A DNA stretch of 64,000 nucleotides from Hydrogenophaga sp. BPS33 (GTDB lineage Bacteria > Pseudomonadota > Gammaproteobacteria > Burkholderiales > Burkholderiaceae_C), in contig NZ_CP044549.1 in assembly GCF_009859475.1 (NCBI RefSeq), positions 682,001 through 746,000 of the forward strand, given 5' to 3'. The notes under the pieces are model-generated. The model did not search any database, was not told where the DNA came from, and saw only the letters and a program-made list of their open reading frames with translations. Shown here in pieces: positions 58,884 to 64,000 of the stretch (position 1 is its first letter; each line of letters starts with the position of its first letter). Made by a program: the position numbers and the translations under genes.

Positions 58884-59234
58884 CTACCGGTGGTCGTTTG
58901 GATCGTAGATCACCGTGCCTGTGCCCACGCCCACCCCAACACGTGCCTTGCTGTTGCCAATGTTGGTGCTGGTGCCCACGCCGGCGCCCGCACTCACCTG
59001 CCCGCGCTGATTGACACCCACGCCCACGCCGACAGGGCCTACGCCGGTACTGACCCCTGCATTCACCCCGCCCGAACCGACGCCCACTCCTATGGAGAAA
59101 GGCCCGATGGGGATGCCGACGCCCACGCCCACCGATGAGCAGCCGGAAACGGTCATCAAAGCCACCATTGCGAGCAGCGCAGTGGCCACGCTGCTGCGCG
59201 CTCGGGACGCGGTGGGGACGGGTGAGGCGTTCAT
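58884..59234 (-). CDS. Gly/Val-repeat lipoprotein
   Basis: This 116-residue protein has a signal peptide with lipobox VSGC (MVALMTVSGCSS). The mature part is almost entirely short Gly-Val repeats (SSVGVGVGIPIGPFSIGVGV, then VNAGVSTGVGPVGVGVGV), with alternating small and branched residues that could form a beta sheet or roll. It ends in TVIYDPNDHR. No family is recognised with certainty. It lies downstream of phcQ on the same strand after 95 bases and may be read with or controlled by that operon. Confidence 0.7.
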   Translation of the reverse strand: MNASPVPTASRARSSVATALLAMVALMTVSGCSSVGVGVGIPIGPFSIGVGVGSGGVNAGVSTGVGPVGVGVGVNQRGQVSAGAGVGTSTNIGNSKARVGVGVGTGTVIYDPNDHR

Positions 59235-59329: not shown

Positions 59330-60286
59330 TTATGGCCGCCCAAGGCTTTCGATGGCGTCCGCCAACCAGTCCGGATGCAGCGCCGCCGACGGCGCAGACG
59401 TCACCGCCCAGCCGCTGGCGTCCGCAGATGTTTCCACTTGTGCCAGGCCACCTTGCCAAAGTAACCAGGCGAGCCAGGCGCAATCGGACGAGGCAGGTGC
59501 TTCGCCCGCACCTCCACTCAAAAGTCCGTTCAACGGGGTTCGGTCGGCGAATCGCACGCGGTCACCCTGCAGCTCACCACCTGCGGCCTGCGACAGCACC
59601 GCCAAAGCACCCGCCCCATCGCGGTGCGGTCCGAATTCGCGAAGCCAATGCCGCAGGTGCCCCACGATGGCCGCGCCGCGCACGGCTTCGGCTTGCAAGA
59701 GATCGGCGTGTTCCCAGCGGTGCCAATCGACTTTGGGCTCTGCGATGCCGGTGAGTTGAGCGGTCTGCGCAAAGCGAAAAAGCGCCTGGTCCACACCGTC
59801 GCTGTGGACGGCCTGGCCGATCACCATCAGGCCGGCCAGCCGATGGCCCAGCAACTGGCTTTGCTGGGCCAGTAGCTTGTCGCGCATGAGTTCGTCGCGC
59901 TCGCCCCGCAGTTCGGCCAACTCGAGCGCGTTCTTCAGGTCGGCGCGCAAGCTTTCCAGCTCCCACGGCTTGTTGATGTAGCGGTAGATCTCGCCGGTGT
60001 TGATCGCCTCGATCGCGTCTCCCAGTTCGGAATAGGCGGTCGTCAGCATGCGAACGATGCTGGGGTAGTACTGGCGCGCATGGCGCAGCAATTCGTTGCC
60101 GTAGGCGCCGGGCATACGTTGGTCGCACACCAGCACCGCGATGTCGGCGCCATGCTCGGCCAACACGGCCCGCCCCTCCTCGACCGAACCGGCGGTCAAC
60201 ACCGGTGCGATCGGACTGACCAGGCGTTCGAAGTACTTCAGCGCCATGGCCTCGTCATCGACATACAGAATTTTCACGGGCTTCAC
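59330..60286 (-). CDS. phcQ: Response regulator PhcQ
   Basis: In this 318-residue protein AGGAG lies 8 bases before GTG 60286 (KPVKILYVDDEAMALKYFE); a longer ATG start would overlap phcR. The receiver domain has phospho-acceptor Asp55 in VLVCDQRMPG, LTTAYSE and the Lys in YINKPWE. The C-terminal 180 residues begin with a coiled coil (LRGERDELMRDKLL) and contain no known output domain. Order and architecture match phcQ, the last gene of Ralstonia phcBSRQ, which tunes release of the LysR regulator PhcA. phcA itself is not in the window. Confidence 0.8.
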   Translation of the reverse strand: MKPVKILYVDDEAMALKYFERLVSPIAPVLTAGSVEEGRAVLAEHGADIAVLVCDQRMPGAYGNELLRHARQYYPSIVRMLTTAYSELGDAIEAINTGEIYRYINKPWELESLRADLKNALELAELRGERDELMRDKLLAQQSQLLGHRLAGLMVIGQAVHSDGVDQALFRFAQTAQLTGIAEPKVDWHRWEHADLLQAEAVRGAAIVGHLRHWLREFGPHRDGAGALAVLSQAAGGELQGDRVRFADRTPLNGLLSGGAGEAPASSDCAWLAWLLWQGGLAQVETSADASGWAVTSAPSAALHPDWLADAIESLGRP

Positions 60287-60314
60287 GGCGGCACTCCTGA
60301 AAGAATCTTCTTGG

Positions 60315-61496
60315 TTACTGAGCAAAAGGGAAATAGAGCGAAACGGTGGCACCCTGGCCCACATCCGAGCGGACGAGAATCGTGCCCCCCAGTGAGGTCA
60401 TCACGCGGCGGCAAAAGATCAGCCCCATGCCGCTGCCACTTGCATGGGCGCGGGTCGTGGTGGGCTCCACGGTGAGGCGCTTGAGCACCTCCGGCGCAAT
60501 GCCTGGGCCGTTGTCACTGACATGGATGACCGCCTGCTCTGGCAGGCCGGGTGCCGGCGCTTCCCGCCCGAGGCGAATCTGCACCTGCGGCTGCGCCGGT
60601 GGCTGGGCACGCAGCGCCAGCAAAGCGTTTTTCACGAGCGTGCAAAGCACGAGATAGAGCAGGTCCCGCCGCCCGGGCAGGACGAAGTCGTCGCTCAGGT
60701 CACTGGTCAGCCACCGGGCTTCGTCGTTGTCGAATGGGAACTCGTCGCGCACGGCCTGCACCAGGTCGCTGGCGCGCAGGTTCGGCGCAGCATCGGGCTG
60801 GTAGGCATCGCGTGCCGTCTGCACGAAGGTCGACACCAGCGACTGCGCGTACTCCGCGCGGCGCTGGGCCGCTTCGATCATGAGCAAGACGTCACCGGGT
60901 TTCTGTTCCTGAATGCGCGCTTCGCCGCTGCCGTCGTGGGGCGTGTCCCGGTGCCGTTCGCGCATGGCCGTCAGATAGCCTTGCACGGTGGCCAGCGGCG
61001 TGGTGACCTCATGGGCCAGAAAGCCCAGGGTTTCACGCAGGGTTGCGGAGCGCCGCTCGACCAAGGCGCGTTCGCGCGCACGCACCAGGCTCGCGTTGAG
61101 CGCCTCGCGCAGGGCCTGGCGCGTCAAGGCTTCGTCCAGCGGCTTCTCCAGAATCTGTTCGACATGCCCCTGGTTGACGGCCGACATGGCCACGTCCTTG
61201 TCGGCATAGGCCGATACCAGCAGGCGCGCAACATGGGGGTAGCGTTGCCGGACCTCGCTCAGGAGCGAGACGCCATCGCGCTGGGGCATGGCGTAGTCGG
61301 TCAGCAGGACGGCCACTTCCTCGCCGCGCTGCGCCAGCAGTGCCAGTGCATCGTTGGCGCCGTGGGCAGTGAAAACGACGAACTCGTCGCCATACAGGCG
61401 GGAGAACCACTTGCAGGCCTGCGGTTCGTCGTCCACCACGAGGATGGCATGTGCGCCGAGCGAACCACGCGAGACGGCGTTGTCATCGGGTTTCAT
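60315..61496 (-). CDS. phcR: Receiver-histidine kinase hybrid PhcR
   Basis: This 393-residue soluble protein has an N-terminal receiver (ILVVDDEPQACKWF; phospho-acceptor Asp67 in LLTDYAMP; LVSAYAD; LEKPLDE). A C-terminal histidine kinase follows with His162 in FLAHEVTTPLATVQGYL and an ATPase domain with VSDNGPGIAPEVLKRLTVEP. Reversed order (receiver first, kinase second) is the hallmark of PhcR. The ATG directly abuts the phcS stop, so it is co-translated with the sensor. It would take phosphate from PhcS and relay it onward. Confidence 0.85.
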   Translation of the reverse strand: MKPDDNAVSRGSLGAHAILVVDDEPQACKWFSRLYGDEFVVFTAHGANDALALLAQRGEEVAVLLTDYAMPQRDGVSLLSEVRQRYPHVARLLVSAYADKDVAMSAVNQGHVEQILEKPLDEALTRQALREALNASLVRARERALVERRSATLRETLGFLAHEVTTPLATVQGYLTAMRERHRDTPHDGSGEARIQEQKPGDVLLMIEAAQRRAEYAQSLVSTFVQTARDAYQPDAAPNLRASDLVQAVRDEFPFDNDEARWLTSDLSDDFVLPGRRDLLYLVLCTLVKNALLALRAQPPAQPQVQIRLGREAPAPGLPEQAVIHVSDNGPGIAPEVLKRLTVEPTTTRAHASGSGMGLIFCRRVMTSLGGTILVRSDVGQGATVSLYFPFAQ

Positions 61497-62822
61497 TCAG
61501 GGCCTCGGCAAGTCAAAAGAGAACTCTGTCCATTGGCCCGCTTCGCTTTCCACCGACAGCGTGCCGCCATGGCGTTGCACGATGCCGTAGCTCACGCTCA
61601 GACCCAGTCCCAGGCCGGCGCCCACGTCGCGGGTGGTGAAGAAGGGCTCGAACACGCGTTCCATGTTCTCCGGTGCGATGCCCATTCCGTTGTCGCGCAC
61701 GGATATGCGCAGGCGCTTGTTGTCTTGGGGTGTCACGCGAATGTCGATGTGTGGTGTCTCGCGTTTGGCAATCTGGATGGCGTGGGCGGCGTTGCTGAAC
61801 AGGTTGATCAGCACGCCGATGATGGCGGGCTCATCGCCCATCACGTGGGAGTCCTGCGGCAGGTCGATGTTGATTTCGACGCCCTTGAGTTCATGGCCGG
61901 CCAGGCGCAGGCCGGATCGCACGGCGTTCTCCAGCAGGAACAGGCGCTGGCCGTCCTGGCCGGGTTTCTGGTAAGCGAAGGTCTTGAGGTCGGAGACGAT
62001 GTTCTGGATGCGCTGCATGCCCTCGCGCGCGTCGATCAGGCTCTCCTTGAGCATGGTGTCCGACTCGGTCGCCGGCGAGGTCAGCCCCATGTTGATGGCC
62101 ATCAGGCTGTAGTTCACGGGGTTGTTGAGCTCGTGCAGCAGGCCGGCGGAGAGCGTGCCGATCGCCGCCATTTTTTCGCGCTGGATCAACTGGCCCTTGA
62201 CTTCGGCCAGGGTGTCGTTGATCTGCTTGAGCGATTCGTTCTTCTCGGACACCTGCCTTTGCAGTGCGAACATGTTGTAGCGCCCGCGCTCGTTGAAGTA
62301 GGTGCAGAAGGAGCTGATGGTGGCGGAGAACAGGATGAAGAGGGAAATGCCGGCGAACTGGCTGAAATCCTTCAGGCCTTCGGGATGGAAATAGCAGGCG
62401 ATGGCGTAACACGCATAGGTGAACAGGCCGAAGGTCAGGCTTTCGAAGAAGGCGATCGGCAGGATGATGCCGGTGGCGTACAGCGCCAGATGCAGGCCGA
62501 CGAAGTAGATGGAGTCCACGCCGTTGGTGACCCAGATCATCCAGGCAATCATGATCTGGGGCAGCGCCAGCCACAGCAGCGTCAGGGGGCGCACCCAGCG
62601 CAGTCCATTGGGAGAGTGCAGCACCCGCAAGATGGCCAGTGTCAGGCCGGCCACCAGGAAGCGCGCGGGCGCCAAGGTGCTGAAGGCCTCGCGGTACAAC
62701 GTGTAGTCCAGGCCCAGCCCCATGAGCACCAGGACCATCGAGACGATCGAGCCTGCCTTGCTGTAGGCAAGACGGAACTCGCTGAGCTGCTGGTGGTAAG
62801 GCGACAGGCCGGCCGGCGTCAT
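61497..62822 (-). CDS. phcS: Membrane sensor histidine kinase PhcS
   Basis: In this 441-residue protein six hydrophobic segments lie within residues 24-178 with very short loops (IVSMVLVLMGLGLDYTLY, MIAWMIWVTNGVDSIYFVGL, ISLFILFSATISSFCTYF), suitable for sensing a lipid-like signal within the membrane. Then comes a coiled linker, His230 in LSAGLLHELNNPVNY, and HATPase with DNGMGIAPENMERVFEPFFT and GLGLGLSVSYGIV. In Ralstonia PhcS senses 3-hydroxy fatty acid methyl esters. It follows phcB after 12 bases. Confidence 0.85.
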   Translation of the reverse strand: MTPAGLSPYHQQLSEFRLAYSKAGSIVSMVLVLMGLGLDYTLYREAFSTLAPARFLVAGLTLAILRVLHSPNGLRWVRPLTLLWLALPQIMIAWMIWVTNGVDSIYFVGLHLALYATGIILPIAFFESLTFGLFTYACYAIACYFHPEGLKDFSQFAGISLFILFSATISSFCTYFNERGRYNMFALQRQVSEKNESLKQINDTLAEVKGQLIQREKMAAIGTLSAGLLHELNNPVNYSLMAINMGLTSPATESDTMLKESLIDAREGMQRIQNIVSDLKTFAYQKPGQDGQRLFLLENAVRSGLRLAGHELKGVEINIDLPQDSHVMGDEPAIIGVLINLFSNAAHAIQIAKRETPHIDIRVTPQDNKRLRISVRDNGMGIAPENMERVFEPFFTTRDVGAGLGLGLSVSYGIVQRHGGTLSVESEAGQWTEFSFDLPRP

Positions 62823-62834
62823 GCTGGGGGCGCC

Positions 62835-63995
62835 TCAGGCGGCTGCGGGCAGACGGAACTCGGCGAACACATTGACGCCGGTTTCGTCGGTGAAGATGCG
62901 CGTGTCTTCGCGGGGCGTGGGGAGAACGTCCTCCAGACCCTTTTCGTCGCGGTAGATCAGGTGCCACTCCAGGAGGTGTTCCATGACGTTCTTCTGTGGG
63001 TTGATCGAGTGCACGTTGGTGACCATGACGGAACCGCCGGGCCGGGTGCGCACGACGAAGTAGTCGAGCAGCCGCGAGCACACCTTATCGGTGAGGTAGT
63101 CGAAGAGCCCGGCGCAATAGACGAAATCGAAAACTTCCTTGTCCAGACTGTCGTCGCGTTTGGAGGCGCGCTTGAGCAGTTGGTGCACGGATTCGTGCAC
63201 GTAGCGCACTTCCACGGGCCGACCTCCGGTCTGGGCAGCGCGCTGGATGCACGAGCGGGTGTACTCGAGCGTGACATCGCTGAAGTCCAGCAGGGTGAAC
63301 TCCAGGCTGGAGGCGTTGGGGTCGGTGGCGATGAAGCGTTGAATTTCGATGGCCGGTCCGCACGCAACGTTCAGGATGCGCACCTTGCGTCCCTCTTTCT
63401 GGGCCAGCGCAGCCGCACGGCCCAGGTAGTCGACCAGGATGTTGATGCGGTTGCGGTGGGCCTCTGCCACCGCAGCCTTCAGGAAGAAGGCATTGATGAT
63501 TTGGAAGTACGTGCTGTTGCCCTGGCGCGGATCGGCCAGGATCTGGTTCACCATTTCGTAGTCACCGGCATAGCCCAGGGGTTTGGCGAAGGTGCGGTAT
63601 ACGAAGGGCGCGCGCAGCAACAGGGGGTGCAAGGCGGTCTGCGCGAAATTGCGGTGGGCGACCGAGTCTTCTTCCGGCACCGCAGCGCCTTCGGCTTCCA
63701 GCGAAACGAAGAACTCCGCGCCCTTCATCATGATGGGTTCGGCCAACTCGTCGAACACGTCGGCGCGGATGCGGCCGTCGGCTTCGCGGGGTAACGCGGT
63801 CGACATATCGGCCTGGTCGGTCCAGCGCGCGGTCTCGGCCAGGAAGGCGCGGAATTCGCTGATGATGACCTGGTAGCTGCGCTTGATCTTGAAACGCTCC
63901 TGCCAGTCGGCCACGAAGCGTTCGGCCTCGCCGCGCACCTGACCGATATCACCCCGGATGGCGTTGAGGTCGAGCCATTCGTCGATCAAGGCCAT
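62835..63995 (-). CDS. phcB: PhcB-like SAM methyltransferase (fatty-acid methyl ester signal synthase)
   Basis: This 386-residue protein has a class I methyltransferase fold with motif I NVACGPAIEIQRF (residues 209-221), then LLDFSDVTLEYTRSC and FDFVYCAGLFDYL. In Ralstonia PhcB methylates 3-hydroxy-palmitate or -myristate to the quorum signal. The N-terminal 200 residues are helical and specific to this family (GDYEMVNQIL). ATG 63995 gives a complete protein, but it is 5 bases from the window edge and a longer start outside cannot be excluded. The following genes phcS, phcR and phcQ confirm the assignment. Confidence 0.85.
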   Translation of the reverse strand: MALIDEWLDLNAIRGDIGQVRGEAERFVADWQERFKIKRSYQVIISEFRAFLAETARWTDQADMSTALPREADGRIRADVFDELAEPIMMKGAEFFVSLEAEGAAVPEEDSVAHRNFAQTALHPLLLRAPFVYRTFAKPLGYAGDYEMVNQILADPRQGNSTYFQIINAFFLKAAVAEAHRNRINILVDYLGRAAALAQKEGRKVRILNVACGPAIEIQRFIATDPNASSLEFTLLDFSDVTLEYTRSCIQRAAQTGGRPVEVRYVHESVHQLLKRASKRDDSLDKEVFDFVYCAGLFDYLTDKVCSRLLDYFVVRTRPGGSVMVTNVHSINPQKNVMEHLLEWHLIYRDEKGLEDVLPTPREDTRIFTDETGVNVFAEFRLPAAA

Positions 63996-64000
63996 GGACA

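What the first reader, a model, noticed from the sequence alone, without database searches (positions are those of the whole stretch)
59330..63995. Complete phcBSRQ-like fatty-acid methyl ester quorum-sensing operon
Four adjacent minus-strand genes show the exact order and domain layout of Ralstonia phcB-phcS-phcR-phcQ: SAM methyltransferase, six-TM sensor kinase, receiver-then-kinase hybrid, and response regulator. Catalytic residues are visible in all (NVACGP; His230; Asp67 and His162; Asp55). In a Comamonadaceae-like genome this suggests density control by a 3-hydroxy acyl methyl ester, possibly with a different chain length.
Basis: partly seen in the sequence, partly recalled or inferred. 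Interest (0 to 1): 0.8.

Follow-up and report, generated by a model that had tools for sequence, protein, structure and literature searches.

The report
Phc signalling operon lacking PhcA
This is a genuine copy of the Ralstonia-type genes that make and sense a fatty-acid methyl ester to gauge crowding, but no close relative of the master regulator those genes switch on in Ralstonia was found in the genome, so here they probably control something else.

Summary
The four-gene operon is real and orthologous to phcB-phcS-phcR-phcQ. PhcB is 61% identical to a Cupriavidus necator counterpart over nearly its whole length. 78 of 80 named loci carry all four genes in the same order. Two corrections: phcB is cut by the window edge (468 aa, start at 64241, not 63995), and phcQ most likely starts at 60286 (318 aa).

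The best PhcA match in the genome is 31% identical, no better than LysR paralogues in Cupriavidus. PhcA was found in 0 of 250 genomes of the family, PhcB in 14 of 250. Of 32 PhcB carriers tested, only the 7 Ralstonia/Cupriavidus genomes have PhcA.

Best reading: a 3-hydroxy fatty acid methyl ester synthase with its two-component sensor, and an output other than PhcA. Candidates, untested, are an LqsR/PhcX-like regulator or another PhcQ partner. The phc cluster in Hydrogenophaga is already in print (PMC10653808). A PhcA-less variant of a known system; moderate interest.

The parts
62835..64000 (-). phcB-like methyltransferase, cut by the window edge; full gene 62835-64241 (468 aa, GTG start outside the window)
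   Evidence: 61% identity (281 of 462 aligned positions) to C. necator protein P0242
61497..62822 (-). phcS-like membrane sensor histidine kinase, 441 aa, phospho-His230
   Evidence: His230 invariant in 17 of 17 aligned sequences
60315..61496 (-). phcR-like receiver plus histidine kinase hybrid, 393 aa, Asp67 and His162
   Evidence: Asp67 invariant in 17 of 17 aligned sequences, two of which lack the kinase part
59330..60286 (-). phcQ-like receiver protein with its own C-terminal domain, 318 aa, Asp55 (Asp81 of the 344-aa frame that starts at 60364)
   Evidence: the Asp is invariant in 27 of 27 aligned sequences

Best explanation
An orthologue of the Ralstonia/Cupriavidus phcBSRQ operon in a Hydrogenophaga-like bacterium in which no PhcA was found. 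Likely mechanism: PhcB methylates a 3-hydroxy fatty acid to a diffusible methyl ester (inferred from homology). At high density PhcS senses it and autophosphorylates at His230 (residue shown here, chemistry from Ralstonia work). Phosphate passes to the receivers of PhcQ and PhcR (inferred). In Ralstonia this ends in activation or stabilisation of PhcA. Here that last step is probably different, because no PhcA orthologue is present (shown by search). PhcQ then acts on another partner, not identified.
For: Near-full-length PhcB homology; for scale, Phc products of Cupriavidus JMP134 and R. solanacearum GMI1000 share 56-75% (PMC2842291, passage). Matching lengths: RSSC PhcB 464-468 aa, PhcR 368-374, PhcQ 336-337 (PMC8578825, passages). 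Conserved order in 78 of 80 named loci. Conserved phosphoacceptors. PhcB tree: the window's family, 14 rows, is one side of a branch at 100/100. PhcA: own genome best 31% identity; 0 of 250 in the family; 2 of 399 in the order, both in one Cupriavidus-like genus; 7 of 32 PhcB carriers, the Ralstonia and Cupriavidus ones. The 25 carriers without it are 14 of the window's family, 4 Paraburkholderia/Burkholderia, 5 of Massilia, Pseudoduganella, Duganella and Janthinobacterium, and 2 MAGs.
Against: No signal, expression or phenotype was measured. No sequence of the R. solanacearum species complex itself was among the 80 named loci, so the comparison rests on other Ralstonia and Cupriavidus. PhcR and PhcQ are only 31-42% and 37-49% identical to the named loci. 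A very distant LysR could still do PhcA's job. The PhcA surveys of family and order scored only 5-8 first-look candidates per genome, and the empty family survey has no positive control within that family. PhcB is sporadic in the family, 14 of 250, so the benefit is not general.
Confidence: 0.75

Rival explanations
1. One reading: a complete Phc quorum-sensing system acting through an orthologue of PhcA.
For: The operon itself. The genome has at least 144 LysR-type matches (150 of 270 candidates scored), so LysR regulators abound.
Against: Best PhcA match 31% identity and 108 bits. LysR paralogues in the four PhcA-bearing Cupriavidus genomes score higher (30-31%, 126-128 bits). The window genome's best match is at most 35% identical to the best matches of the other PhcB carriers compared; some of those do form groups among themselves (four family genomes at 58-78%, four Paraburkholderia/Burkholderia at 82-96%), so a lineage-specific LysR partner is not excluded for them.
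Confidence: 0.06
2. The output is an LqsR/PhcX-type response regulator or another unlinked regulator that takes PhcA's place.
For: PhcX/LqsR is reported next to the phc genes in Hydrogenophaga, Cupriavidus and Ralstonia (PMC10653808, legend in section 17). The window genome has a PhcX-like protein at G000:C1:1114133-1114843 (28%, 73 bits), and 11 of the 14 PhcB+ genomes of the family have such a match. The copies of the three genomes of the window's genus are 70-77% identical to each other.
Against: Identity to Ralstonia PhcX is low (26-36% in the family), so orthology to LqsR is unproven. In the window genome it lies about 370 kb from the operon, unlike the published arrangement. Three of the 14 (G042, G107 which is 76% complete, G240) gave no match. 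PhcB-minus genomes were not searched for it.
Confidence: 0.25
3. The operon is not quorum sensing: PhcB modifies a cell-bound lipid or acid and PhcS/R/Q respond to envelope state.
For: No PhcA and no measured signal. In C. metallidurans CH34, which has the genes, 3-OH PAME could not be extracted, which the authors take to mean a structural variant (PMC2864759, passage). The real substrate of this PhcB is open.
Against: Same operon and residues as a system shown to make and sense a methyl ester in Ralstonia (passages). PhcB Arg22, the position changed in the R22C mutant that lowered signal output in Ralstonia (PMC6989110, passages), is an Arg here too, by alignment to C. necator; the R. solanacearum sequence itself was not aligned.
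Confidence: 0.12

Closest known systems
phcBSRQ operon of Ralstonia/Cupriavidus
   Same: gene order, domain layout, protein lengths, phosphoacceptor residues, catalytic motif; over the 80 named loci 55.7-61.4% (B, n=80), 47.3-55.0% (S, n=80), 30.9-42.5% (R, n=79), 36.8-48.5% (Q, n=79) identity (these loci include Paraburkholderia and Oxalobacteraceae)
   Different: no PhcA found in the genome; the operon lies behind a gene that I read as htpG, not some 15-25 kb from phcA and fur as in R. pickettii and C. necator
phc cluster of Hydrogenophaga (PMC10653808, section 17 read whole)
   Same: same kind of host and operon; the nearest named database proteins are Hydrogenophaga
   Different: figure 7b and table S5 not seen, so I cannot say whether the lack of phcA is shown there; the section read does not discuss it
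phc-like operon on a plasmid of Paraburkholderia graminis PHS1 (L002), typed as conjugative
   Same: four genes in order
   Different: PhcR there is a bare receiver of 134 aa without a kinase; plasmid-borne
Lqs system (LqsA/LqsS/LqsR)
   Same: also a signal synthase with a sensor kinase and a receiver protein (PMC10653808, section 17)
   Different: different synthase and signal according to that paper; the operon's proteins were not compared with Lqs proteins here

Membership tests
phcBSRQ operon family | PhcB-type methyltransferase, full length about 464-468 aa | tested here: met
   468 aa; 61% identity to C. necator P0242; tree
phcBSRQ operon family | PhcS sensor kinase with autophosphorylated His230 | tested here: met
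   His230 in LLHELNNP, invariant in 17 of 17; need for H230 in R. pseudosolanacearum from PMC11960443, passages
phcBSRQ operon family | PhcR: receiver followed by histidine kinase | tested here: met
   Response_reg and HATPase_c above cut-off, HisKA just below; Asp67, His162, DNGPG and GSGMG present
phcBSRQ operon family | PhcQ: receiver without DNA-binding domain plus a conserved C-terminal part | tested here: met
   only Response_reg above cut-off; C-terminal invariants W214, E226, W297, W303 of the 344-aa frame in 27 of 27; relatives by the C-terminal part alone bear the source name PhcQ where named by JGI
Phc quorum-sensing system (complete) | PhcA, LysR-type output regulator | tested here: not met
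   best 31% identity in own genome; 0 of 250 in family; positive controls found in Ralstonia/Cupriavidus
Phc quorum-sensing system (complete) | production of a 3-hydroxy fatty acid methyl ester | not testable with these tools
   needs chemistry
Phc quorum-sensing system (complete) | phosphotransfer PhcS to PhcQ/PhcR and density-dependent gene control | not testable with these tools
   needs experiments
Lqs system | LqsA synthase with LqsR next to LqsS | not tested
   only a PhcX/LqsR-like protein was sought and found weakly; LqsA and LqsS were not searched

The most novel reading that the evidence does not exclude
The Phc module is older than, and independent of, PhcA: synthase, sensor and PhcQ form a portable signalling core, and PhcA was added as output only in the Ralstonia/Cupriavidus line (two changes of PhcA state suffice on the PhcB tree). 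In the window's organism PhcQ then hands the signal to a so far unknown partner. PhcQ may itself be a receiver fused to a decayed kinase-like module (order of elements in one model only; no profile support).
Probability: 0.55. Interest if true: 0.55.

Novelty: new variant of a known kind. Interest (0 to 1): 0.38.

Why it matters
Phc signalling is known mainly as the switch that drives PhcA in Ralstonia. Carriers without PhcA suggest that signal making and sensing are kept, and have probably moved between lineages, without that output. This makes a question about the system testable in bacteria that are not crop pathogens: what does PhcQ do when its partner is not PhcA? It also warns annotators that finding phcBSRQ does not mean PhcA-style regulation.

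Tried and rejected
Rejected: the ATG at 63995 as phcB start and 60364 as phcQ start. Rejected: a PhcA orthologue in the genome.

PhcQ C-terminus: the model (mean pLDDT 83, 27 sequences) has a long helix 133-186, more helices, then helix-strand-strand-helix-helix-strand-strand-helix, which to my eye resembles a decayed DHp plus ATPase module. Sequence support is lacking. Comparison of 120 PhcQ C-termini (120 of 147 collected passed my motif and length filter) with the PhcR and PhcS kinase parts gave E 0.057 (27 columns of the linker helix) and 0.22 (32 columns); five reversed or unrelated controls gave 0.18-0.79. Whole PhcQ against whole PhcS aligned collinearly over 208 columns but at E 0.27, probability 0.2%; PhcQ against PhcR matched in the receiver only. 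In the second-look structure comparison the rows shown are receivers or proteins with a receiver, the C-terminus is barely tested there, and a kinase is not excluded. So this stays a lead.

A PilZ-like N-terminal domain in PhcB was a passing idea. Pfam on 44 PhcB sequences: every family hit by more than 3 members is a methyltransferase family, CheR included; positions are shown only for the first member, where all hits lie after residue 236.

No conserved neighbour gene suggested an output. In nine loci of the family (seven shown in full, two as match partners) the neighbours look like housekeeping genes, and in the three loci of the window's genus htpG; gene names such as rpoN, rlmL, cinA, thiL and htpG are my reading of sequences, not tool labels (output cut in the middle).

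A first tree contained two rows translated on the wrong strand by my script (L156, L158); they were corrected and the tree rebuilt. Alignments used part of what I had: PhcQ 26, PhcS 16 and PhcR 15 of the 80 named loci, plus the window and, for PhcR, L002; the tree used 36 of the 80 plus L002, 14 family and 6 order genomes. One PhcQ row (L006) was left out because my script had picked the wrong frame. For the PhcA test 18 of the 80 named loci's genomes were taken.

Literature on phc genes outside Ralstonia/Cupriavidus: in an open-licence library only; the lists were capped (15 of 560, 12 of 175, 12 of 33 shown).
Full report
What is there. The window is G000:C1:682001-746000 of a 6.77 Mb, three-contig genome rated 99.86% complete. 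At its right end lie four minus-strand genes in the order methyltransferase, sensor kinase, receiver-kinase hybrid, receiver protein. The first gene runs out of the window: relatives are mostly 463-474 aa and the frame continues in L001 to a GTG at window-equivalent 64241, giving 468 aa. The last gene most likely starts at 60286 (318 aa), as in the database copy P0245, which removes its overlap with the third. Gaps between genes are then 12, 0 and 28 nt. The gene upstream on the same strand contains MSKQTLSFQAEVAQLLHLVTHSLYSNPDIFLREL, which I read as htpG (recalled, no family scan was made of it); its stop lies 115 nt before the phcB start (L001:8357 and 8241).

Who the host is.

Is it phcBSRQ? 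The window's PhcB aligns with a Cupriavidus necator protein (P0242, named only class I SAM-dependent methyltransferase by its source) at 61% identity over 462 aligned positions. A scan of named genomes with P0242 kept the best 80 of 496 relatives: Cupriavidus, Ralstonia, Paraburkholderia/Burkholderia, Massilia, Duganella, Pseudoduganella, Janthinobacterium and records named only to family or order. None is named R. solanacearum. In 78 of the 80 all four window proteins have a match in the same order. The two misses are L081, a 3.7 kb contig, and L058, where phcQ follows phcS directly. Identities are 55.7-61.4% for B (n=80), 47.3-55.0% for S (n=80), 30.9-42.5% for R (n=79) and 36.8-48.5% for Q (n=79). 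Three of the 78 have an R match that stops short of the kinase end: L062 is a bare receiver, L016 and L025 are split matches. Thirteen further loci of the window's own family gave 11 complete operons; the other two end at a contig end inside the operon. For scale, Phc products of Cupriavidus JMP134 and R. solanacearum GMI1000 are 56-75% identical (PMC2842291, passage).

Residues. PhcS His230 is invariant in 17 of 17 aligned sequences, and the same residue number is the autophosphorylation site needed in R. pseudosolanacearum (PMC11960443, passages). PhcR Asp67 is invariant in 17 of 17, and the window's PhcR keeps His162, DNGPG and GSGMG. The PhcQ phospho-Asp is invariant in 27 of 27. PhcB has NVACGP. 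PhcB Arg22, by alignment to C. necator, has the residue number changed in the R22C mutant that reduced signal in Ralstonia (PMC6989110, passages; the R. solanacearum sequence itself was not aligned).

PhcA. In C. metallidurans and R. solanacearum phcA lies next to fur (PMC2864759, passage). I found the LysR gene beside fur in three named genomes and used the C. necator one as query. In the window's genome the best match is 31% identical, 108 bits. Thirty-two PhcB-bearing genomes were searched, 14 of the window's family and 18 reached through named loci. Seven have a clear PhcA (66-100% identity): R. pickettii, R. soli, Ralstonia sp. A12 in two pieces, and four Cupriavidus. The other 25 have at best 32%, two of them no match at E 1e-20, and LysR paralogues inside the PhcA-bearing Cupriavidus genomes reach 30-31% and 126-128 bits. 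Family survey: PhcB in 14 of 250 genomes, PhcA in 0 of 250. Order survey: PhcB in 10 of 399, PhcA in 2 of 399, both PhcB carriers of one Cupriavidus-like genus. Class survey: PhcB in 2 of 369, both in the window's genus. The empty family survey has no positive control inside that family; the positive controls come. In some searches at most 5 and 8 first-look candidates per genome were scored.

History. On a PhcB tree of 57 proteins the window's family (14 rows) is one side of a branch with 100/100 support. The seven Ralstonia rows (one of them a MAG named Burkholderiaceae bacterium) are one side of a branch (100/99). Seven Paraburkholderia/Burkholderia rows sit inside Cupriavidus, while the P. 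graminis plasmid and P. caledonica rows group with Oxalobacteraceae. The branch uniting Ralstonia with Cupriavidus has only 92/81, and five rows, three of them in the window's family, were flagged as long. Over the 38 rows with a PhcA state two changes suffice, for example one gain in the Ralstonia/Cupriavidus line and one loss in the nested Paraburkholderia (absence in four of these rows assumes that searches drew the same 399 genomes, and the broken Ralstonia sp. A12 copy was scored as present). In nine loci of the family the operon sits among the same genes, and one of these, read by me as rlmL, is also near the operon in Ralstonia, which fits an old chromosomal location; the three genomes of the window's genus have it behind htpG (output partly cut).

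Mechanism. Shown here: orthology, operon, residues, lack of a PhcA orthologue. Taken from Ralstonia work: PhcB makes methyl 3-hydroxymyristate or palmitate, PhcS senses it, PhcQ is the main and PhcR a partial mediator (PMC8578825, passages), and PhcQ binds PhcA, keeps it stable and depends on its disordered tail for binding (PMC13320629, passages). Inferred: the same chemistry and phosphotransfer here, with another partner of PhcQ. The variable presence of PhcR fits its minor role: it is a bare receiver in P. graminis and P. caledonica and absent in L058. A PhcX/LqsR-like protein is present at G000:C1:1114133 (28%), 76-77% identical to its counterparts in the two other genomes of the genus, and is one candidate output; it lies about 370 kb away, three of the 14 family carriers lack a match, and PhcB-minus genomes were not searched for it.

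What is known already. PMC10653808 (section 17 read whole; other passages) mapped phc and lqs genes over 6,937 Proteobacteria genomes, found phc restricted to Betaproteobacteria and names Hydrogenophaga. So the operon in such a host is not new. I could not see its figure 7b or table S5, so the lack of phcA may be shown there; the section read does not mention it. The searches listed, in what was shown, no study of Phc function in Hydrogenophaga or other Comamonadaceae.

Verdict. Interest is moderate because the missing output regulator is the informative part.

Noticed in passing
G000:C3:71256-71684 (-): A LuxI-family autoinducer synthase match (64.9 bits, above cut-off) on the third contig: the genome may also use acyl-homoserine lactones.
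   Followed up: no
window 58884-59234 (-): A 116-aa open frame rich in glycine and valine with a lipoprotein-like start, directly downstream of phcQ on the same strand.
   Followed up: no
window 59330-60286, PhcQ residues 133-344 of the 344-aa frame: Predicted fold of the uncharacterised PhcQ C-terminus resembles a decayed kinase module by order of elements; no significant profile match.
   Followed up: partly
L002:12508-12912, L062:12736-13158, L058: PhcR is a bare receiver in two Paraburkholderia and missing in a Burkholderiales MAG, so B-S-Q looks like the constant core.
   Followed up: partly
L002 (NZ_CP024936.1): A phc-like operon on a plasmid typed as conjugative in Paraburkholderia graminis.
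   Followed up: partly
L041:20165-21184 (-): Paraburkholderia translucens has a second phcQ-like gene about 5 kb from its phc operon.
   Followed up: no
G268 (Ralstonia sp. A12), contig C21: The PhcA relative matches in two overlapping pieces, the second with two stop codons inside the match: apparently broken.
   Followed up: no
G000:C1:1114133-1114843 (-): LqsR/PhcX-like response regulator, 76-77% identical to counterparts in two other genomes of the genus.
   Followed up: partly
PhcB residues 1 to about 90: Strongly conserved N-terminal part without a Pfam match in the one sequence for which positions were shown.
   Followed up: partly
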